64,000 bases of DNA, taken from positions 62,001-126,000 of the forward strand of contig NZ_PYWM01000011.1 of the NCBI RefSeq assembly GCF_003049665.1, read 5' to 3'. The DNA is from Lysinibacillus mangiferihumi (GTDB taxonomy: Bacteria > Bacillota > Bacilli > Bacillales_A > Planococcaceae). Under the pieces are notes generated by a model. That model did not search any database. It was not told the origin of the DNA and saw only the letters and a program-made list of their open reading frames with translations. Every line of letters starts with the position of its first letter. Positions within the stretch are counted from its first letter, which is position 1. The position numbers and the translations under genes are program-made. This document shows positions 6,664 through 51,971 of this stretch, piece by piece.

Positions 6664-9528
6664 GTGAAAAATACAGAAATCGTCGTGCAAGGCGCACGAG
6701 CACATAATTTAAAAAATATAAATGTCACAATTCCACGTGATCAATTAGTCGTGTTAACAGGTTTATCGGGTTCTGGGAAGTCTTCCTTAGCGTTTGATAC
6801 GATTTATGCCGAGGGGCAGCGTCGTTATGTAGAATCGCTATCTGCCTATGCGCGCCAATTTCTCGGCCAAATGGATAAACCAGATGTAGATGCAATTGAG
6901 GGGCTATCGCCTGCCATTTCAATCGATCAGAAAACGACAAGCCGTAATCCACGCTCAACAGTTGGAACCGTTACGGAAATCTATGATTATTTACGTTTGC
7001 TATTCGCTCGTATTGGGAAGCCAATATGTCCAAATCATGGTATAGAAATTACATCGCAAACGATTGAGCAAATGGTGGATCGTTTATTAGTTTATCCAGA
7101 ACGTACGAAAATGCAATTACTGGCACCGATGATTTCAGGTCGTAAAGGGACGCATGTCAAGTTACTAGAAGACTTGAAAAAGCAAGGCTTTGTACGCGTA
7201 CGGATTGATGGTGAATTACGCGATTTAGATGATGCGATTGATCTTGATAAAAATAAAAAGCATTCGATAGAAGTTGTAGTCGATCGTGTTGTTGTTAAAG
7301 AGGGCATTGCAGCTCGTCTTAGTGATTCGTTAGAAACAGCCCTTCGTTTAGCTGAAGGACGCGTTCTTGTTGATGTCATGGAACATGAAGAATTATTATT
7401 TAGTGAACATCATGCCTGCCCATTATGTGGTTTTTCAATAGGGGAGTTAGAGCCTCGTATGTTTTCATTTAACAGTCCGTTTGGAGCATGTACAAGCTGT
7501 GATGGGTTAGGAACAACGCAGGAGGTTGATTTAGAACTAATCGTGCCAGATTGGGAACGGTCATTATTAGAGCACGCCATTGCACCATGGGAGCCTACCA
7601 GCTCACAATATTATCCACAACTATTAAAGGCAGTATGTGACCATTACGCGATTCCGATGGACGTACCTGTCAAAGATTTACCTAAAGAAAAGATGGATAA
7701 GATTTTATATGGTTCTGGTAAAGATAAAATTCGCTTCTATTATGAAAATGAATTTGGCAATGTACGAGATCAGATGATTGAATTCGAAGGTGTCGTGCGT
7801 AATGTAGAGCGCCGTTTTAAAGAAACAACTTCTGATTATGTACGAGAGCAAATGGAGAAATATATGGCACAGCAAGCTTGTCCATCTTGTAAAGGTTACC
7901 GATTAAAGCCCGAAACATTAGCTGTGAAAATTGGCGATCAACATATTGGACAAGTAACAGAGTATTCGATTCAGGAGGCAGATACGTTTTTCAAAGAGCT
8001 CGATTTATCTGAAAAGGATATGCAAATTGCGAGACTCGTATTGCGTGAAATCGAGGAACGACTTGGCTTCCTAGTGAATGTAGGGTTAGATTATTTAACA
8101 TTAAATCGTGCAGCTGGAACACTTTCAGGTGGAGAAGCACAGCGAATTCGTTTGGCAACACAAATTGGCTCTCGCTTAACAGGTGTACTCTATATTTTAG
8201 ATGAACCATCCATTGGACTACATCAGCGAGACAATGACCGTCTTATTAGTACGCTACAAAATATGCGAGATATCGGCAATACACTGATTGTTGTCGAGCA
8301 TGATGAAGACACAATGCTAGCGGCAGATTATCTGATTGATGTTGGACCGGGCGCCGGTGTACATGGTGGTCAAATTGTAGCAGCAGGTACGCCACAGGAA
8401 GTCATGGATAATCCACAGTCGTTAACAGGCCAATATTTAAGTGGCAAGAAGTTCATACCACTACCAGTAGAGCGTCGTAAACCAAATGGGCGTAAATTAT
8501 CTATAGTGGGGGCAAAGGAAAACAATCTGCAGAACGTCAAAGTAGATGTGCCATTAGGTTTATTTGTAGCAGTAACAGGTGTATCTGGATCAGGTAAATC
8601 AACACTAATTAATGAAATTTTATATAAATCATTAGCCCAAAAACTCAATCGTTCAAAGGTAAAGCCAGGCGCACATAAAGAAGTATCAGGAATCGATGAA
8701 TTGGAAAAGGTTATCGATATTGACCAATCGCCAATAGGAAGAACCCCTCGCTCCAATCCTGCAACGTATACGGGTGTCTTTGACGATATTCGCGATGTGT
8801 TTGCCACAACAAATGAAGCGAAAGTACGTGGTTATAAAAAAGGACGTTTTAGCTTTAACGTTAAAGGTGGCCGTTGTGAAGCATGTCGGGGTGACGGGAT
8901 TATTAAAATTGAAATGCATTTCCTACCAGATGTCTATGTGCCATGTGAGGTTTGCCATGGCAAACGTTACAACCGTGAAACACTTGAAGTAAAATATAAA
9001 GATAAAAGTATTGCCGATATTTTAGATATGACAATTGAAAATGCAGTCGTGTTTTTCGAAAATATTCCTAAAATCCAACGTAAATTACAAACAATAGTTG
9101 ATGTTGGCTTAGGGTATATGAAATTAGGTCAACCTGCCACAACACTGTCGGGTGGTGAGGCGCAACGTGTCAAATTGGCATCTGAATTACATCGTCGCTC
9201 AACAGGTAAGTCATTTTATATTTTAGATGAGCCAACGACGGGCTTACATGCAGATGATATTGCGCGTTTACTAATTGTTTTACAACGACTTGTAGAAAAT
9301 GGGGATTCGGTGCTTGTTATTGAGCATAATTTAGATGTTATTAAAACAGCGGATTACATTATTGACCTAGGACCAGAAGGTGGCGACAAAGGAGGTACCA
9401 TTGTTGCAACTGGTACACCAGAAGAAGTAATGGAAGTGGCTGGCTCTTATACGGGTAAATATTTAAAACCGATTTTAATACGTGATCGACAACGTATGGA
9501 AACGGCTTTAACAGAAGCAACAAAATAA
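6664..9528 (+). CDS. uvrA: Excinuclease ABC subunit A
   Basis: DNA damage sensor ATPase of nucleotide excision repair. It contains two ABC modules: Walker [10 protein letters not shown] near residue 31 and GVSGSGKST near 640, with two signatures (LSGGEAQR) and two Walker B/D-loops ([19 protein letters not shown]). Zinc-binding cysteines are visible in CPLCGF...CTSCDG and CEACRGDG...CEVCHG. At 954 residues it is full length. The GTG start lies 7 bp after uvrB, with the ribosome site (AGAAGGGTGA) inside the end of uvrB, so the pair is cotranscribed and shares SOS control. Confidence 0.97.
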
Positions 9529-21684: not shown

Positions 21685-24600
21685 ATGACATTACGAATTG
21701 TATCAGGACGTGCAGGTACCGGAAAATCGGCTTATATTCATAGAGAAATAGTCGAACAATTAAATACCGATCCATTAGGTCACCCTATTTTTATCATTGT
21801 CCCTGACCAAATGTCTTATTCAACTGAATATGAACTGACAAATAGACATGGCTTGCACGGGCTCATACGTGCACAAGTGATGACGTTTAAACGCTTAGCT
21901 TGGCTTGTACTTCAAGAAACAGGGGGTATTGCTCGCCAAGAAGTAAATGGCTATGGTTATCGAATGCTTATTCGAAAATTGCTAGAAGAGCAGAAGAGTG
22001 ATTTTTCGTTATTTCGACAAGCAGCTGGTAAGCGTGGCTTTACAGAGGAAATTGAAACGTTGTTACGCGAATTTAGCCGTTATAGCGTGAACAGTTCGGT
22101 TTTAGGTGATGTAACTGCTTCTTTAAAGGCGATTGATGCACCTCATACACTACAGGCGAAAATCAATGATTTATACATTGTTTTACAAGCATTAGAAGCT
22201 CGGCTCGGTACAACTTATGTCGATAGTGAAGGCTATTACCCGATTTTAACCGAGCACTTAAAATTTTCTGAGACGATGAAACAGGCAACAATTTATATAG
22301 ATGGCTTTACTGCCTTTACTGTAAGAGAGCTAGAGCTTGTAAAAGAATTACTAAAGGTGACGAAGCAAGTAACGGTTGTACTACCGTATGATCATATGGA
22401 AGAAGCCAAGGATGAGCAGGCATTATTCAATGAAGCGGCCACTACAAGTCAACGCTTGCATGATATAGCATATGACAATGGCATTGAAGTCGAAGCACCG
22501 TTGCATTTTATCAAAACCCATCGATTTCAGTCAAAAGACTTACAGCATGTAGAAGCAACATTTGCGGATATAGTGCCCCAAACAGAAAAATCCACAGGTG
22601 ATGTGAAAGTTTTTGAAGCCTCAAATCGTCGGGCTGAAATCCATGCCATTGCCCGGGAAATAACGAAGCTGACTAGGCAGGAGGGCTATCGTTACCAAGA
22701 TATAGTGTTGCTGTATAGACAAGCAGATGTATACGATCCACTAATTTCAACAATTTTCCAGCAATACGACATTCCTATTTTTGTGAATACAAAAAAAACG
22801 ATGCTTCACCACCCGTTAATTGAATTTAGTCGATCTGCATTGGAAGTTGTTATTTCAAATTGGAAATATGAACCGCTTTTCAGAAGTGTGAAAACTGATT
22901 TATTTTTCCCGTTACATGCTGAAAACAGTGTTTGGCGTGAACGGGCCGACCGTCTAGAAAATTACTGTTTAGCGCAAGGAATTTACGGAGAGCGTTGGTT
23001 TGACGAAGCTCGTTGGTTTTATAAGAAATATCGGGGGCTTGAATTCCATTCTCGTGTGCAAACAGACGAAGAACGTGCGATGCAGACAGAAATTGAGGCC
23101 ATTCGCGACGAAATTCGCACACCATTAAAAGCGTTACAGGACAAGCTTATACTGGCCAAAACGGGTAGAGATGTGGCAACAGCGTTATTTGAGCTAGTAG
23201 AAGAAGTGCAAGTATATGACAAGCTTCAAATCATGAAAGATCGTGAATTGGATAGAGGAGAGGCGTTAGCCGCAAGTGAGCATGATCAAGCGTGGAAAGA
23301 ATGGATCGCCGTACTCGATCAGTTTGTTTACATGTTTGGTGAGCAAGAAATGTCGGTACAGGAAGCGGCAAAGATTTTAGATGAAGGTTTTGATACATTA
23401 GAATTCGCTCGTATTCCTCCAACTTTAGATGAAGTGATGGTGGCAACGGTCGATTTAGCGCGCCTATCGCACATAAAAGTTGCCTTTGTTCTAGGAATGA
23501 ACGATGGCGTCTATCCTACACGTCTGGATTATGAAGGTCTTTTGTCTGATGTAGAACGTGAATGGTTTACGCATATTGGCTATGAATTAGCACCGACATC
23601 TAAAAATCGGCTATTACAGGAAAACTATTTATTGTATCGTGCCATAACTACACCATCTGACAAGCTCTATTTGACTTATCCGACGGCAGATGAAGAGGGG
23701 AAAGCTTTAATATCCTCGTTATATATAAAGAAAATTATAGGAAATGAAAAAACGGCAGGTCTTTTAAGTGGGGTAAACGTCGAGCGTGTTGTCATTGATC
23801 CGATAGAATTACTTGATGATAATGTATTGCCTTATATTCGCCATCCTCGTACAGCGTTAGCTCATTTAATGCTGCAATTAAGGCAAGCGGAGCATAGTCG
23901 TGAACTTGCACCAGAATGGGTTGCTTTACAAAAATATTATGAACAAGATCCATACTGGGCATTAATTTTACGTCGCCTGATGCATCCAATGACACATAAA
24001 AATGAGGCAGAACCGCTAGAAGGTTATATTACACAAGAATTATATGGTCGCAAGCTCACTTCAAGTGTGTCACGTATAGAAAAATACTTCCGTTGTCCGT
24101 TTTCTCACTTCACGACGTATGGGCTTCGTTTAGAGGAACGAGCAGAATATCGTTTAGAGACATTTGCAATGGGTGATTTGTTCCATGAAGCATTGAAATG
24201 GATTACCGAAGAGACGCACCGTTTACAACTGTCGTGGATTCGTTTATCAAAACAGCAAATTCAACAACTTGCACGACAGGCAGTAGAGCAAATTGTGCCC
24301 GTTTTCTCTCACCAAATTTTATTATCTAGTGCACGTTATCGTTATATTCAACGTAAGCTGATTCGCATTGTAGAGCGCACGATGATGGCACTGACACAGC
24401 ATGCCAATGTGTCACACTTTAAACCAATTGCTATTGAAGCATCATTCGGACCAGGGCAGCATGAACAGCTACCGCCATTGGAAATTGATTTGCAAGGTGG
24501 CAAAAAAATGTACATGCGCGGTCGTATTGACCGTGTGGATAGTGCATCGATTGATGATCGCTCGTATTTACGAATAGTCGATTATAAATCGTCTGCTCGT

Positions 24601-25194
24601 GACTTAGATTTAAATGAAGTGTATCATGGCCTATCATTGCAGGTGCTAACATATTTAGATGTAGCGATGGAGAATGCATCCTATTGGTTATCTGGCGATG
24701 CAGAGCCTGCTGGTGTGCTTTATGTCCATGTCCATAATCCGATGTTAAAACTGGATAAGGACTTGAGTGACAGTGAGATTGAAGAAGATCGCTTAAAGCA
24801 ATACAAAATGAAGGGACTTTTAACTGAAAATCCTGAGGCTATTTACTCGATGGATGAGCAGCTAGAGGAAGCGAGCGGGCATTCGCAAATTATTCCAGTT
24901 TATATGAAAAAGGATGGTACCCCTTCTGAATCACAATCACGCATCGTGCCCGTTAATGATATGAAAAATCTCCAGCATTTTGTCCGCCGTAAGCATCAAG
25001 AGGCTGGCAACGGCATTTTAGCAGGGGATACGGCTATAAGCCCTTATAAGCTAAAAGCAAAAACAGCGTGTGATTACTGTCAATTTGCAGCAGTATGCCA
25101 ATTTGACCCATCTGATGGCAAACAAAGTTATCGTCAGCTACAGCAAGTAAAGCCAGTAGAAGTTGTCGAAAAAATTCGCAAGGAGATGAACTAA
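21685..25194 (+). CDS. addB: ATP-dependent helicase/nuclease subunit B (AddB)
   Basis: Chi-recognising and nuclease subunit of AddAB, which processes double-strand breaks for RecA. Walker A GRAGTGKS lies at residues 8-15. The C-terminal RecB-type nuclease shows GRIDRVD...LRIVDYKSS. The iron-sulfur cluster cysteines are visible as YFRCPF and the terminal CDYCQFAAVC. The length of 1169 matches the family (1166). ATG 21685 follows AAAAGGGGGAAGC. The gene ends 1 bp before the addA ATG, so the two are coupled. Confidence 0.96.
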   Translation: MTLRIVSGRAGTGKSAYIHREIVEQLNTDPLGHPIFIIVPDQMSYSTEYELTNRHGLHGLIRAQVMTFKRLAWLVLQETGGIARQEVNGYGYRMLIRKLLEEQKSDFSLFRQAAGKRGFTEEIETLLREFSRYSVNSSVLGDVTASLKAIDAPHTLQAKINDLYIVLQALEARLGTTYVDSEGYYPILTEHLKFSETMKQATIYIDGFTAFTVRELELVKELLKVTKQVTVVLPYDHMEEAKDEQALFNEAATTSQRLHDIAYDNGIEVEAPLHFIKTHRFQSKDLQHVEATFADIVPQTEKSTGDVKVFEASNRRAEIHAIAREITKLTRQEGYRYQDIVLLYRQADVYDPLISTIFQQYDIPIFVNTKKTMLHHPLIEFSRSALEVVISNWKYEPLFRSVKTDLFFPLHAENSVWRERADRLENYCLAQGIYGERWFDEARWFYKKYRGLEFHSRVQTDEERAMQTEIEAIRDEIRTPLKALQDKLILAKTGRDVATALFELVEEVQVYDKLQIMKDRELDRGEALAASEHDQAWKEWIAVLDQFVYMFGEQEMSVQEAAKILDEGFDTLEFARIPPTLDEVMVATVDLARLSHIKVAFVLGMNDGVYPTRLDYEGLLSDVEREWFTHIGYELAPTSKNRLLQENYLLYRAITTPSDKLYLTYPTADEEGKALISSLYIKKIIGNEKTAGLLSGVNVERVVIDPIELLDDNVLPYIRHPRTALAHLMLQLRQAEHSRELAPEWVALQKYYEQDPYWALILRRLMHPMTHKNEAEPLEGYITQELYGRKLTSSVSRIEKYFRCPFSHFTTYGLRLEERAEYRLETFAMGDLFHEALKWITEETHRLQLSWIRLSKQQIQQLARQAVEQIVPVFSHQILLSSARYRYIQRKLIRIVERTMMALTQHANVSHFKPIAIEASFGPGQHEQLPPLEIDLQGGKKMYMRGRIDRVDSASIDDRSYLRIVDYKSSARDLDLNEVYHGLSLQVLTYLDVAMENASYWLSGDAEPAGVLYVHVHNPMLKLDKDLSDSEIEEDRLKQYKMKGLLTENPEAIYSMDEQLEEASGHSQIIPVYMKKDGTPSESQSRIVPVNDMKNLQHFVRRKHQEAGNGILAGDTAISPYKLKAKTACDYCQFAAVCQFDPSDGKQSYRQLQQVKPVEVVEKIRKEMN

Positions 25195-25195
25195 C

Positions 25196-26456
25196 ATGAT
25201 GCAGCAAATACCTGTCAAGCCAGCGAATGTCACTTGGACTGATGATCAGTGGAAAGCGATTTATGCAAGTGGGCAAGATACGCTTGTTTCAGCAGCTGCA
25301 GGCTCTGGTAAAACGGCGGTCCTGATTAATCGCATGATTGAAAAGGTTGTGGCAACAGAAAATCCAATGAATGTGGATGAACTTCTTGTCGTAACGTTTA
25401 CGAATGCTTCCGCAGCTGAAATGCGTCATCGTATGGCAGAGGCGCTTGAAAAAGCAATTGCAGCAAATCCGACGTCGAGCCATTTGCGACGTCAGTTAAG
25501 CCTAGTCAATAAAGCGCAAATTTCGACATTGCATTCCTTTTGTTTAGCGATTGTTAAGCAGTATGCTTATTTGCTCGATATAGACCCAGGTTTCCGAATT
25601 GCTAATGAGGCAGAAATCGCCTTGCTCCGAGATGATATATTAGCTGACGTGCTAGAATCTGCCTATGATACAGATGACGAAGCGCGAATTCATGCAATCT
25701 ATCAACTTGTCGATAGTTTTACATCAGATCGTGATGATCAAGCGATTGAAACATTAATAAGTAAGCTTTATGATACGTCGCGTGTCCATGCTGAACCACA
25801 AAAATGGTTAACGAGCTTACCAGAAACCTATCAGCTAGCGGACGATGTGACAATAGACGATTTAGATTTATCTAAATATGTGAAGTTAACTGTAAAACAT
25901 AGCCTTGAAGAAGCATTCGTTCTTATTTCTGAAATGCGTGCGATAACGCTTCAGCCAGATGGACCGGCTCCATATGCTGAAACCGCTGAAATTGATTTTG
26001 CAATGATTCAGGAAGGGATTCGTATCAGTCAAGAGGGCACATGGCAACAGCTATTTGATTATTTTTCAACAGTCAAGTGGTCGACATTAAAACGGGTATC
26101 CAAGGATGCTTTAGTCGATGTGGAGCTTCAAGAGCTAGCGAAGAAAAAGCGTGAGGCTGCTAAAAAAATAATGAATAAGTTGAAAGATACTTATTTTGTT
26201 CGTACACCTGCACGTTTGCTGGAAGAAATTAGATTGATGGCGCCAACGATTGCAACATTAGTTGACTTGACGTCTATTTTTAGCCAGCAATTCCGTCTTG
26301 CCAAATTAGAGCGAGGTATTATCGATTTCTCCGACTTAGAGCATTATGCCCTGCAAATCTTAACGGAAGAGGTAGAGGGAGAATTACAACCATCGCCTGT
26401 TGCGTTCGATTTACAAAGACGTTTTAAAGAAGTGCTGGTGGATGAATACCAAGATA
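25196..26456 (+). CDS. addA: AddA helicase/nuclease, 5' exon (residues 1-420)
   Basis: UvrD-type helicase subunit of AddAB. This exon carries the Q-motif region, Walker A AAAGSGKTAVLINR (residues about 35-48), motif Ia VVTFTNASAAEM and the first half of motif II, VDEYQD at 415-420. The coding frame is broken one base into codon 421 by a group II intron; reading on gives five foreign residues and a stop at 26473. Joined to the 3' exon at 27528 the protein is 1,237 residues, against 1,232 in B. subtilis, and the junction reads DEYQD-T-NMLQETILQL. The ATG at 25196 is 1 bp after addB. Confidence 0.95.
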
Positions 26457-27130
26457 GTGCGACACGTTGCTAATTGAAAAGATTAGCCACTAGCATCATT
26501 TCGCTAGGAGAACTAAGAAATCAGATGAGTCTAATGATGAGGTAACGCTCTGAAAGGCTCGACCTAATCCTCCGAATAGCATTGTCGCGTGCAATCGTGA
26601 TGATGTTATAAGCTCGGTGAAGTCAGTTGAACATCCTCCTAATCGAAAGAAGGAAAGCGGGATAGAGGTACTCTGTGGGATGGATAGACTGGGGTTCTAT
26701 AAAAATACTCATGGTTAGAATGTAGGGAACAAAACTTCCTACTGACGAAATTCCGAATGTACGGCTCTAGAGGTATAGGTATTCGAAAGGGTACACCAAC
26801 TTATTGTTGGGTTAGTGAGGTGGAGTAAAATTTGTCTTTATGAAACACCTTATAGTGTTACAGGCACTATCCAGCTAACAGGGTTAGAGGAATGACCTAA
26901 AAGTATTATATGTACAGATATGATTTCTTGGAACGTGGTAAGCTGGCTACGTGGAGAGATTGCACTCGTTGAAGCGGTATGAGGGAAAGCGTCTATAGTA
27001 TAACCTCATTTTAAGCACAGTGAAAGTGATGGCACAGTACCAGTGAAGCCGTGATAATAAGCGGTTGAGGGATAGCCATTAGTCAATTTATGAATAACTA
27101 AAACATTACTTTATACTATCAGGTTCTCGT

Positions 27131-27427
27131 ATGACTAAAAGAAATGCAATCGCCAAAAGAAGTACTAAAGTGGTGAGAGTATTGACTGAAACAGCAAACA
27201 AGAAAGTTTTAAAACGACAGTCCTTACGAAACAATGAATTACGACATGAAACTAACCTTAGATGACCTTTACAAAGCAAGTCAAATGAACAAACGCTTTA
27301 AAAATCTGTATGAATTGATTATTCGTAGAGAAAATATTATACCTTCAAATGTTAGAGTTAACAAAACAAAGTTTGGACAAAGTAAATAAACTTCGTGTTA
27401 AAGCTGGAAATAAAGTATTAGTTTAAA
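27131..27427 (+). pseudogene. decayed intron-encoded maturase/reverse transcriptase
   Basis: Three overlapping frame pieces inside the presumed domain IV. 27131-27265 encodes a 44-residue Lys/Arg-rich start (MTKRNAIAKRSTKVVRVL). 27246-27389 contains LDDLYKASQMNKRFKNLYEL and IIRRENI, resembling the N-terminal leader of LtrA-type proteins just before the reverse transcriptase domain. A third frame ends LDKVNKLRVKAGNKVLV and a stop at 27426. The catalytic YADD region and the maturase domain are absent. Assignment is by resemblance plus position. Confidence 0.65.
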
Positions 27428-27443
27428 GATTCATAATTGATGG

Positions 27444-27527
27444 AACGCCGTATGAGGGGAAACCCTCACGTACGGTGTGAATGGGGGGAAAAGCTGGAGA
27501 TGATTTCAAAGGCTTACCTATCCATAT
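27444..27527 (+). ncRNA. group II intron domains V and VI
   Basis: Domain V is a 34-nt hairpin with a GAAA tetraloop and a two-base bulge; the triad position reads CGC rather than the commoner AGC. Domain VI pairs ATGGG/GGG with CC/TAT/CCAT and leaves A27520 bulged as the expected branch point. Confidence 0.88.
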
Positions 27528-29980
27528 CGAATATGCTACAAGAAACCATTTTACAATTGGTCAAGCTAGGCGATGAGCACGATGGCAACCTTTTTATGGT
27601 TGGTGACGTAAAACAAAGTATCTATCGCTTCCGTTTAGCGGAACCCAAACTTTTTATGCGAAAGTATGGGGAGTTTGTAGAAAATCCTGATACGACGGGG
27701 ATGCGCATCGATTTGAATGCCAATTTCCGTAGTCGTAGTGAAGTTTTAAACGCAACCAACTTTGTGTTTGCACAAATTATGGATGAACGTGTCGGTGAAA
27801 TACACTATGATGACAATGCTTCATTGAAGCCAGCAGCGCCGTATGATGCTAAAGAGGTACCTGTTGAGCTCGTGATTTTACATCCGCCAGAGGAACAGGC
27901 AGCGGATGAAGAAATAGAAGAAAGTGTAAGTGAAGCATCGGAGCTTGAGGAACTGAAGAAATCACAATATGAGGCACGTTTTATAATTGATCGCATTCGA
28001 CAATTGATGGAAGAGGGAACAACGGTATACGATACGAAAACGGCAACAGAACGTCCTTTAAAATACAGTGATATTGTCATTTTAATGCGCTCTATGACGT
28101 GGTCTACAGATTTGGTAGAGGAATTTAAGTTGGCAGGCATTCCTCTTTATGCAGAGTCATCTAAAGGTTATTTCGATGCCTTAGAAGTGATGATTATGCT
28201 GAACACACTAAAAGTTGTCGATAATCCATATCAAGATATACCATTAGCTTCTGTATTACGTGCACCGTTTGTTGGCTTAACAGAAAACGAGCTCGCAAAA
28301 ATTCGTTTAGCAGATACTAAAACACCGTTTTATGATGCATTAAGGCAATTTATACGCAGTGAAGGACATGGTGTGCAATCCGAAACATTTGAGAAGCTTC
28401 AACGTTTTATGTTGGCATTTGAAAACTGGCGAGATTTAGCACGTCGTGGCTCTTTGTCGGATTTAATTTGGAAAATTTACTTGGATACACATTATTATGA
28501 AATGGTTGGTGCCATGCCGAATGGTAAACAACGACAGGCAAATTTACGCATTTTACATGATCGAGCATTAATGTATGAAAAGACGGCGTTTCGAGGGCTG
28601 TTCCGCTTTTTACGCTTTATCGATAGAATGCGCACGCGTGGCGATGATTTAGGAACAGCAAAGTCGATTGGTGAAAAAGACGATGTAGTGAGACTGGTAA
28701 CAATTCACTCATCCAAAGGTTTAGAGTACCCAGTTGTTTTTGTTGCAGGAATGGGACGACCTTTTAACAAAATGGACTTCCACAATCCGTATTTATTTGA
28801 CCAAGATTATGGGCTTGCAGTTAAAGCAATTGACCCTGAAAATCGGATTACCTATACTTCTTTGCCATTTCTAGCGATGAAGGAGAAAAAGGAGCTTGAG
28901 ATGAGAGCCGAAGAAATGCGGGTGTTGTACGTAGCAATGACGCGTGCAAAGGAACGACTTATTTTAATTGGCTCCGTAAAAAATTGGGATAAAACACTTG
29001 ATTCCTGGCAGGACGCGCAAAACTTGCCTGTGGATGCTCCTTTGCAAGATTATTTACGCGCGCGTGCAAATAGTTATTTTGACTGGGTTGGGCCAGCTGT
29101 TGCGAGACATGCTGATTTTGCAGCTATTACAAATTCTTCGTATAAAGCAAGACAAGATCTCTCGCATTGGTGGGTAAGAGCCATTTCAACACATCATTTT
29201 ATGTATGAAACGCAAGCGTTAGATGAAGACGTGCAACAGATGTTCACAACGCCAGAGGACACAGCTCTACTTGCAGAAATTACAGCTCGCTTCCAAGCCC
29301 AATATGCATACCAAAAATCGACACAGAAGCGTTCGAAAACATCTGTTAGTGAAATTAAACGTCTAGAAAGCTTACAACGTCTAGAGGAGCCAGAATACTA
29401 TTTTACCGCTCCTAAAAAGAACAAGGCTACGATTGCCCCACGACCAACCTTTTTACAGGATAAGCAGCTTACAGGTGCGGAAATGGGGACAGCCATTCAT
29501 ACGGTCATGCAACATGTACCACAATGTGGCTTTAGCACAGTACAAGAAGTGGAGCAATTTGTCACTGAGTTAGTGGTAAAACAACTGCTAACCGAGGCAG
29601 AGAGCAAGATTGTTCCGTGTGAGAAAATTTACCGTTTCTTTACAACCGATATTGGACAACGTTTTAAAAATGCCAAGCAAATTCGAAGAGAAATGCCATT
29701 TACGATAAGCCGCGTGGATGAGGATGGCGACGCTCAAATTGTGCAAGGGATTGTCGATTGCTTGTTTGAGGATGTCTACGGTAACTGGATATTACTTGAT
29801 TATAAAACCGACCGCATTGGGCGGCAATTTGCAGAGGAGCCGGCGTTATCGAAGGAACTTTTAGGTCGCTATGGGGTGCAACTACGTGTTTATAGCGAGG
29901 CACTTGAGTCTATTTTACACATACAAGTGTATGAGAAAGTGTTGTATTTATTTGATATTGAGCAGGCCATTTATGCTTAG
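27528..29980 (+). CDS. addA: AddA helicase/nuclease, 3' exon (residues 421-1237)
   Basis: Continues AddA from the third-phase codon ACG (Thr421). Seen: motif III MVGDVKQSIYRFR, motif IV region DLNANFRSR, motif V VTIHSSKGLEYPVVFVAG, motif VI LYVAMTRAKERL and a C-terminal RecB-like nuclease with GTAIHTVMQ, GIVDCLF and LLDYKTDR. A pseudo-start upstream at 27437 lies within the intron and should not be used: there is no ribosome site, and those first 30 residues come from domain V and VI. Function in the cell depends on splicing of the intron. Confidence 0.95.
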
Positions 29981-44755: not shown

Positions 44756-46136
<1,381 letters not shown>

Positions 46137-51393: not shown

Positions 51394-51971
51394 CTATTTT
51401 ATGTAGAAATTAGCTTTTAAGAAAAAAGTAAATAATAATGTTTTTCTTTGATTTACAAATGATTAAAAGTTTCCATCTTGAAAAAATACTGTACTGTAAT
51501 CGCTTTCTATATGACAAATTTGTGAATCTAAAGCAGGATTCATTGCTAAATTTATTATTCCATGATAAAGTGAATCTTGTGAAATAAATCACAAAACAAA
51601 CATACACCCCTTTGTTTGAACGTGAACATTTCTCCCATCCCCTTTGTGAAAAAGAGGCGTCTCTATCTGTCGAGGATAGTGGCGCCTCTTTTATTATAGT
51701 TCTTTCCTGCTAATTCTATATATTCCAAGTCTTTTGTAGTTTTTTTCTTAGCGTCTTTTTTAACTAAGGTGGATAGATTGATATTCACTTAATGATAAGA
51801 CGAAAGATGTAATCTTGTTGCCTTCATATAAGGTTTTAGTATCACTGTCTTTGACCTACAATAGGCACTTCCTATAATGAAAGATTATGACGTTATGAAA
51901 TAAAAAAAAGAATAGGACTCAGTTATAAAATGGTTGAGTTCCTATCCTTTTGGCATAAAAGTATAATTGCA
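51394..51971. other. intergenic region between pepF and spxH
   Basis: No supported gene. A hairpin AAAGAGGCG...CGCCTCTTT with T run lies at 51651-51695, with no gene immediately upstream on either strand; it could mark a lost gene or a small RNA end. The spxH terminator lies at 51903-51951 on the minus strand (AGGATAGGAACTCA with TGAGTCCTATTC and eight T). Confidence 0.55.

What the first reader, a model, noticed from the sequence alone, without database searches (positions are those of the whole stretch)
26457..27527. Group II intron in frame-breaking position inside addA
Seen: GTGCG 5' end, domain V hairpin, domain VI with bulged A at 27520 flanked by G.U pairs, AT 3' end, and perfect restoration of a 1,237-residue AddA (DEYQD-T-NMLQET) after excision. 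Introns in bacterial housekeeping genes are uncommon, since most sit in mobile or intergenic DNA. Ordinary annotation will call two broken AddA genes.
Basis: partly seen in the sequence, partly recalled or inferred. Interest (0 to 1): 0.92.

Follow-up and report, generated by a model that had tools for sequence, protein, structure and literature searches.

The report
Group II intron reading protein motifs
A self-splicing, mobile RNA element interrupts a DNA-repair gene exactly at its catalytic motif, and its guide sequences appear built to recognise every synonymous way of writing that protein motif, which would let it jump between different essential genes and species.

Summary
Window 26457-27527 is a 1,071-nt group II intron (two Rfam hits). 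Removing it restores a 1,237-residue AddA, and two near relatives carry the predicted empty site. It is an IEP-deleted copy of a 2,692-nt intron found at the same addA site in another genome of the genus (98.6% identical over 888 nt; flanking exons only 75-80%).

It is not alone. The same genome has related introns in polC and recJ and a more distant one in pcrA. In a capped scan of named genomes this lineage sits mostly in-frame, in phase 1 in 89 of 95 readable cases. Common targets are DEYQD|T (AddA, PcrA), GDYDA|D (RecJ) and PDIDL|N (PolC). addA and pcrA introns interleave on a tree.

The new point: the guide segments (EBS1, EBS2), found by covariation, use wobble pairs opposite codon third bases and Watson-Crick pairs elsewhere (33:6 against 1:58, p about 8e-19). 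Met and Trp codons, which have no synonyms, face strict C (4 of 4 read). This intron's guide pairs 10/10 with all 16 encodings of EYQD. The guide thus seems to read a protein motif rather than one DNA sequence. Splicing and homing are inferred, not shown.

The parts
25196..26456 (+). addA exon 1 (420 codons plus the first base of the codon for T421), ending ..DEYQD-A|
   Evidence: TIGR02785 profile 1-399; UvrD-helicase PF00580
26457..27527 (+). group II intron, 1,071 nt, phase 1, IEP-less
   Evidence: Rfam; exact empty site in relatives
26444..26455 (+). E-Y-Q-D codons; bases -2..-6 pair with EBS1 and -7..-11 with EBS2 (IBS1/IBS2)
   Evidence: covariation scan over 25 target motifs; 10 of 10 positions pair here
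26471..26473 (+). first in-frame stop (TAA) for a ribosome reading unspliced exon 1
   Evidence: ORF 25196..26473
26508..26703 (+). Rfam D1-D4 match (RF02004, group-II-D1D4-5)
26772..26776 (+). EBS2 GGTAT, faces exon -7..-11
26834..26838 (+). EBS1 GTCTT, faces exon -2..-6
27098..27342 (+). remnant of the N-terminus of the intron-encoded protein, frame-broken
   Evidence: tblastn with the G013 IEP, intron nt 642 onward
27339..27342 (+). junction of the internal deletion of about 1.6 kb that removed most of the IEP
   Evidence: intron nt 1-886 and 883-1071 match nt 1-888 and 2504-2692 of the 2,692-nt intron of G013
27340..27423 (+). remnant of the IEP C-terminus (28 residues)
27443..27527 (+). 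domains V and VI; candidate branch-point A at 27520
   Evidence: RF00029
27528..29980 (+). addA exon 2 (..CG-N-M-L-Q-E-T.. to stop)
   Evidence: TIGR02785 profile 401-1232
21685..25194 (+). upstream ORF of 1,169 aa, by position and length AddB (name from recall, not scanned)

Best explanation
This is a recently arrived copy of a mobile group II intron lineage that lives inside conserved motifs of DNA replication, repair and conjugation genes. It splices out of the addA mRNA to restore DEYQD-T. It has lost most of its reverse transcriptase/maturase, so it probably depends in trans on the one closely related intact maturase of the genome, encoded in the recJ intron. The lineage finds its target by pairing two 5-nt guide segments (EBS1, EBS2) with the codons just before the insertion point. 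At guide positions that face codon third bases it mostly carries G or U, which tolerate C/T or A/G. The guide therefore accepts many or all synonymous encodings of one peptide motif. That explains how one intron type occupies both addA and pcrA in many species. SHOWN by computation: intron anatomy, exact exon restoration, empty alleles, near-identical introns in diverged hosts, mixing of addA and pcrA introns on the tree, guide-exon covariation, wobble bias at third positions. INFERRED: splicing in vivo, trans-action of the recJ-intron protein, retrohoming as the route, selection for codon tolerance.
For: Intron. Empty sites; 24 of 32 genomes of the genus have uninterrupted addA and 8 have split addA. 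Spread: intron 99.4% identical over 620 nt to that of G013 while exon 1 (600 nt) is 79.7% and exon 2 (400 nt) 74.8% identical. Tree of 31 introns: addA needs 5 changes (at least 4 forced by well supported branches) and pcrA 7 (at least 5). Trans maturase: 2 RT genes found in the genome; the recJ-intron protein is 47% identical to the IEP that this copy lost and hits TIGR04416 at 353 bits. Guides: a covariation scan over 25 target motifs picks EBS2 (z 8.9) and EBS1 (z 7.7). Codon third bases: wobble 33, Watson-Crick 6, mismatch 5; first/second bases: wobble 1, Watson-Crick 58, mismatch 3; Fisher p 7.7e-19. G-ending degenerate codons face U 18 times, C never, G (mismatch) 3 times; the Met and the Trp codon of the set face C, as do two more Trp codons read by eye. 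This intron's guide pairs 10/10 with 16 of 16 EYQD encodings and with all 24 empty addA alleles fetched. 24 of 26 DEYQD introns have EBS1 GTCTTT; the 26 sites use 10 encodings, those 24 use 9 (with the exceptions placed).
Against: No RNA data: splicing and homing are not shown. Two of 26 DEYQD introns have A instead of G at guide position 1. In the PolC group EBS2 pairs poorly (3 of 5) and the wobble/strict contrast inside EBS1 is blurred. In the four phase-1 introns of five found in divergent viral contigs, third-base EBS1 sites other than Trp are 4 wobble to 2 Watson-Crick (by eye). Counted as absolute pairs over synonymous encodings, real guides beat a strict complement in 14 motifs, tie in 2 and lose in 9 of 25, because several real guides carry mismatches; only relative to their own native pairing do they win in 25 of 25. 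A second intron type (LtrB-like 5' end) fits at -4 (6 wobble, 0 Watson-Crick, 1 mismatch) but not at -1 (4 wobble, 7 Watson-Crick, 2 mismatches), and its guide segment was picked by a fitted text pattern. Post-insertion synonymous drift tolerated by G.U pairs could produce part of the bias. The 25 motifs are not fully independent lineages.
Confidence: 0.83

Rival explanations
1. The intron is a dead insertion: an IEP-deleted relic that no longer splices, leaving the strain AddA-deficient.
For: The IEP is deleted and frame-broken; no RNA evidence; the nearest empty relatives are only 2-3% diverged around the site, so decay might not yet show.
Against: The ribozyme parts scored by Rfam are complete, guides pair 10/10, exon 2 is intact, and polC, found in one copy, is interrupted by an IEP-less intron of the same lineage.
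Confidence: 0.08
2. The wobble bias is passive: introns inserted at Watson-Crick matched sites and the host codons later drifted synonymously, G.U pairs being tolerated; the guides were not selected for tolerance.
For: Ten synonymous encodings are seen at 26 occupied DEYQD sites with a nearly constant EBS1, so exons do differ under one guide. In 9 of 25 motifs the real guide has fewer absolute pairs over synonymous encodings than a strict complement would.
Against: Under this model guide A should be common opposite third-position T at insertion, but opposite T-ending codons the EBS1 guide is G 16 times, A twice and T twice, and G or T fills 57 of 66 third-facing EBS1 positions against 35 of 66 at -3 and -4. 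Met/Trp codons face C, 4 of 4 read.
Confidence: 0.2
3. Ordinary, isolated case: one more group II intron that happens to sit in a housekeeping gene, like recA of Geobacillus kaustophilus.
For: Precedent cited in PMC4424553 and PMC3522654 (passages seen).
Against: Four replication/repair genes are split in this genome; 21 matches in 10 of 32 genomes of the genus, 20 read plus own polC, lie in addA, pcrA, polC, recJ or a radC-like gene (names by eye except AddA and PolC).
Confidence: 0.03

Closest known systems
Geobacillus kaustophilus recA group II intron (Chee and Takami 2005; seen only as cited in PMC4424553 and PMC3522654)
   Same: Group II intron inside a housekeeping DNA-repair gene of a Bacillales bacterium.
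   Different: One gene is named in the passages seen; here a lineage recurs in several replication/repair genes and moves between paralogous helicases. Its guides were not compared here.
Thermosynechococcus elongatus TeI3/TeI4 introns (PMC2882425, passages)
   Same: IEP-less introns derived by ORF deletion and mobilised by the protein of a related intron.
   Different: Only a small number of those introns lie within genes; here insertion is into coding motifs in a nearly fixed phase.
Homing endonucleases of group I introns, e.g. the cytochrome b enzyme discussed in PMC3943268 (passages)
   Same: Found at conserved protein motifs; tolerated target positions correlate with wobble positions of the host frame.
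   Different: There a protein reads DNA; here an RNA guide would achieve it with G and U opposite third bases.
Inteins in replication/repair proteins (PMC2814812, passages)
   Same: Same kind of host genes and preference for conserved sites.
   Different: Spliced at protein level. The same paper found no significant preference for conserved sites in the group II introns it analysed (combined p = 0.49).
Ll.LtrB of Lactococcus (PMC6003770, passages from abstract and text)
   Same: Group II intron in a DNA-processing gene.
   Different: Relaxase gene on a plasmid; that abstract says group II introns seldom interrupt housekeeping genes.
Group II introns in phages (PMC12350094, passages)
   Same: Notes a near-identical intron in two remotely homologous helicase genes.
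   Different: No codon-third-base rule was seen in the passages read.

Membership tests
Group II intron | 5' end GUGYG | tested here: met
   GTGCG at 26457
Group II intron | Domain I-IV structure | tested here: met
   RF02004 154.1 bits, full model 1-201
Group II intron | Domain V with catalytic triad and domain VI with bulged A near an AY 3' end | tested here: met
   RF00029 62.7 bits, full model, ending at the splice site; CGC triad and A27520 read by eye
Group II intron | EBS1/EBS2 pair with the 5' exon | tested here: met
   Covariation over 25 motifs; 10/10 pairs here
Group II intron | Excision restores the host gene | tested here: met
   empty alleles
Group II intron | Splicing in vivo or in vitro | not testable with these tools
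   No RNA data
Mobile (retroelement) group II intron | Intact reverse transcriptase/maturase in domain IV | tested here: not met
   This copy has lost IEP residues of about 83-621; a full-length copy exists at the same site in G013
Mobile (retroelement) group II intron | Evidence of spread to the same site in other hosts | tested here: met
   98.7-99.4% intron identity (620 nt) against 79-80% exon 1 identity for G021 and G013; interleaved tree
IEP-lineage class (A-F, ML, CL) | Placement of the IEP on a reference tree | not tested
   Only TIGR04416 and RVT_1 matches obtained
Conserved-site homing element (intein-like behaviour) | Insertion in conserved catalytic motifs of replication/repair genes | tested here: inconclusive
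   21 of 21 genus matches lie in addA, pcrA, polC, recJ or a radC-like gene; that the motifs are catalytic is established knowledge; no conservation statistic was computed

The most novel reading that the evidence does not exclude
A group II intron lineage targets peptide motifs rather than DNA sequences. Its EBS1 and EBS2 act like strings of anticodons: G or U opposite degenerate codon third bases, strict pairs elsewhere and at Met/Trp. One guide thus recognises the synonymous encodings of a conserved peptide, which lets the intron home across species and between paralogous essential genes. The insertion phase (1 here, where the guide starts at -2; 0 in the LtrB-like introns, where it seems to start at -1) keeps the guide in register with codons.
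Probability: 0.7. Interest if true: 0.92.

Novelty: new variant of a known kind. Interest (0 to 1): 0.86.

Why it matters
A review describes bacterial group II introns as mostly outside housekeeping genes and ORF-less ones as rare (PMC4424553, passages), and one survey found no preference for conserved sites in the group II introns it analysed (PMC2814812, passages). Here is a lineage that does the opposite, in motifs of PolC, PcrA, AddA and RecJ, with a simple, testable reason for its reach: a guide degenerate in the same way as the genetic code. It gives a principle for RNA guides that tolerate synonymous change (relevant to targetrons and other RNA-guided tools). It offers natural cases in which essential bacterial genes would depend on ribozyme splicing, and it warns that annotation can split such genes into false fragments.

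Tried and rejected
EBS2 by regular expression gave wrong segments (counts 14:11 and 10:23, p 0.06 in the reduced set) and was replaced by the alignment-based scan. A first EBS1 search by mean pairing alone was ambiguous on register; exchange of exons between groups settled it. The idea that phase 1 exists to place an early stop codon (TAA at intron 15-17) was dropped: the search pattern itself requires TAA, and several more distant introns lack it. Wider searching: phylum sample 4 of 398 genomes, own included; order 35 of 261. Viral contigs gave 3 and 8 stretches, three of them shared.

Rows dropped before counts. One search reports 16 introns from 21 loci given; L012, L158, L161, L165 and L167 gave none (5' pattern, 3'-end pattern or stop-free filter). 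One search keeps 86 introns in which the EBS1 context was found; 77 had phase 1 and an upstream ORF of at least 40 codons; 33 remain after removing repeats of the same last five residues and EBS1; 25 remain with one per last-four-residue motif. The DEYQD row of the 25 is L086, one of the two exceptions (first in the list, not chosen). In one search EBS1 could not be read from the alignment for two of the 25 motifs (GQFEW, PDIDL); of 116 matches, 95 had an upstream ORF of 40 or more codons (89 phase 1, 6 phase 0) and 21 did not; 22 rows, EBS1 read in 20 by a text pattern fitted to the loop seen, which fixes some bases; L255 was caught at a wrong place; the one phase-1 row is a chance second match inside L269. 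Met/Trp codons facing EBS2 were looked at only in the 25 representatives. L225, with a 40-codon frame and guide A opposite T at -5, resembles the non-coding sites and was not counted either way.

Literature: ten searches listed no paper whose title or abstract start reports codon-tolerant EBS guides. Only open-licence papers are held; nine papers were opened, passages only, plus one section of PMC8919778. Simon et al. 2008 is not held; Michel et al. 2007 (specialised lineages) was not read.

Full report
WHAT IS THERE. Rfam places group II intron domains at 26508-26703 (154.1 bits) and 27443-27527 (62.7 bits). Removing 26457-27527 joins 25196-26456 to 27528-29980 into a 1,237-residue AddA. The exons match the AddA model TIGR02785 at 1-399 and 401-1232. 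The insertion lies between the first and second base of the codon after DEYQD, the Walker B motif of the helicase (motif name from established knowledge).

EMPTY SITES. Of 32 genomes in the genus, 24 have an uninterrupted addA reading frame and 8 a split one. Six are split at DEYQD|T; G001 and G031 also carry a second intron at GDVKQSI|Y (helicase motif III), and G016 and G025 carry only that one. G027 and G029 have exactly the sequence predicted for ligated exons. AddA differs between this strain and them at dN/dS 0.085 and 0.082.

ORIGIN. The intron is a 2,692-nt intron of the kind found at the same addA site in G013 and G021, minus one internal stretch: against G013, nt 1-886 match nt 1-888 (98.6%) and nt 883-1071 match nt 2504-2692 (96.3%). 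Remnants of both ends of the encoded protein remain. Over the first 620 nt it is 99.4% (G013) and 98.7% (G021) identical to those introns, while the flanking exons are 75-80% identical: the intron moved between species recently (inference). On a tree of 31 introns (11 of 26 inner branches well supported, 11 forks open), addA and pcrA copies interleave: the Kurthia huakuii pcrA and addA introns are sisters (100/100), and the G013 pcrA intron groups with the addA introns of this strain, G013 and G021 (96/91). A Peribacillus plasmid holds a relative at the same motif of another UvrD-type helicase, annotated as two CDS.

NOT ALONE. The same genome has related introns in polC (PDIDL|N, IEP-less, 767 nt) and recJ (GDYDA|D, 2,771 nt, with an intact 634-aa protein), and a more distant one in pcrA (LAY|V, motif VI, with its own 592-aa protein). 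PolC was found in one copy. The RVT_1 search found two reverse-transcriptase genes, those two. The recJ-intron protein is 47% identical to the protein that the addA intron has lost, the pcrA-intron protein 26%, so the former is the likely trans-acting maturase (inference). A 5'-end pattern found 21 matches in 10 of 32 genus genomes and none for the reversed pattern; they lie in addA 6, pcrA 2, polC 7, recJ 5 and a radC-like gene 1 (names by eye except AddA and PolC). In a named-genome scan that stopped at its limit, 95 of 116 matches had an upstream reading frame of at least 40 codons, 89 of them in phase 1. The commonest targets were EYQD 19, DYDA/DYDT 11 and DIDL 6, then a long tail that looks in part like conjugation genes (by eye). 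16 genus introns splice in silico to open frames.

THE GUIDES. Aligning one intron per target motif (25 motifs) and asking which intron segments pair with their own 5' exon better than with the others' gives two peaks: one facing exon -7..-11 (observed 0.87 paired, expected 0.44, z 8.9) and one facing -2..-6 (0.87 against 0.49, z 7.7). These are taken as EBS2 and EBS1; here GGTAT at 26772-26776 and GTCTT at 26834-26838. Base -1 lies outside the best-scoring segment, so with phase 1 the guide begins exactly at a codon boundary.

CODON TOLERANCE. Where the exon base is T or G, the guide can pair strictly (A, C) or by wobble (G, U). At codon third bases (-2, -5, -8, -11) the counts are 33 wobble, 6 strict, 5 mismatched; at first and second bases 1 wobble, 58 strict, 3 mismatched (p 7.7e-19, one intron per motif). 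A less reduced set of 33 introns gives for EBS1 26:3 against 2:32 (p 5e-12); nine introns in non-coding or other-phase places show 3:5 and 0:11. Degenerate codons ending in G face U 18 times, C never and G 3 times; the one Met ATG and one Trp TGG in the set face C, as do two further Trp codons (L226; L244; by eye). Several guides read like anticodons: GUC for Asp, UCC for Gly, CCA for Trp, UUG for Gln, GUU for Asn (anticodon identities from general knowledge). This intron's guide pairs 10/10 with all 16 encodings of E-Y-Q-D and with the 24 empty addA alleles fetched. The 26 occupied DEYQD sites examined use 10 encodings; 24 of the introns have EBS1 GTCTTT. Averaged over synonymous encodings, real guides keep all of their own native pairing (ratio 1.00) while strictly complementary guides would keep 86%, better in 25 of 25 motifs; but in absolute pairs real guides are better in 14, equal in 2 and worse in 9.

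LIMITS. In the four phase-1 introns of five from divergent viral contigs, third-base EBS1 sites other than Trp are 4 wobble, 2 strict (by eye). In LtrB-like introns, mostly in addA motif III and a RadC-like gene, 19 of 20 rows with a long enough frame are in phase 0 (the other is a chance match). There the presumed guide starts at -1; position -4 fits (6:0, 1 mismatch), -1 does not (4:7, 2 mismatches), first/second bases are 0:39, but the segment was picked by a fitted text pattern, so this is suggestive only. The own pcrA motif VI intron fits by eye only. The polC group has weak EBS2 pairing. Motif groups share ancestry, and passive drift may explain part of the pattern.

MECHANISM. Most likely: the intron RNA, with a maturase supplied in trans, splices from addA mRNA. 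Full-length relatives retrohome to sites that encode the same peptide motif, aided by guide bases that ignore synonymous change; internal deletion then leaves splicing-only copies such as this one. Splicing, trans-action and homing are inferred.

LITERATURE. Passages seen state that most bacterial group II introns lie outside housekeeping genes and that ORF-less ones are rare in bacteria (PMC4424553), that they are virtually never in housekeeping genes (PMC3522654), and that the group II introns analysed show no conserved-site preference (PMC2814812). Wobble tolerance is described for a homing endonuclease (PMC3943268). No report of codon-tolerant EBS guides appeared in the listings.

Noticed in passing
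L012 (G000:C62:40000-50000): pcrA of the same genome is split at motif VI (LAY|V-GITRA) by a different group II intron with its own RT/maturase with an HNH domain; its DEYQDT site is empty.
   Followed up: partly
L165, L167 (addA of G001, G031): addA with two introns of two different kinds, at motif II and motif III, i.e. a three-exon bacterial gene.
   Followed up: partly
L258-L263, L265-L267, L270: LtrB-like introns in a RadC-like gene at HPREI| (or HPREV|), phase 0; L269 has one at a PcrA-like motif III (DSDQSI|). G001 also has an intron of the addA type in a RadC-like gene at AHNH| (L034).
   Followed up: partly
   Followed up: partly
L099 (Metalysinibacillus, position 7914 of the minus strand): A matching intron 5' end in a frame ending ..SRNAMNIDG, probably ligA.
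   Followed up: no
L013 (G000:C68:24054-24125): Isolated match to the domain V region of the intron, no intron around it recognised.
   Followed up: no
window 45810-46041 (-): T-box leader (RF00230, 134 bits).
   Followed up: no
window 51579-51691 (+): RsaE/RoxS small RNA (RF01820, 82.9 bits).
   Followed up: no
window 27437-27527: Domains V-VI are open in frame with exon 2 (ORF 27437-29980), so unspliced RNA could yield an AddA C-terminal fragment; similar open 3' ends are seen in the polC, recJ and pcrA introns.
   Followed up: no
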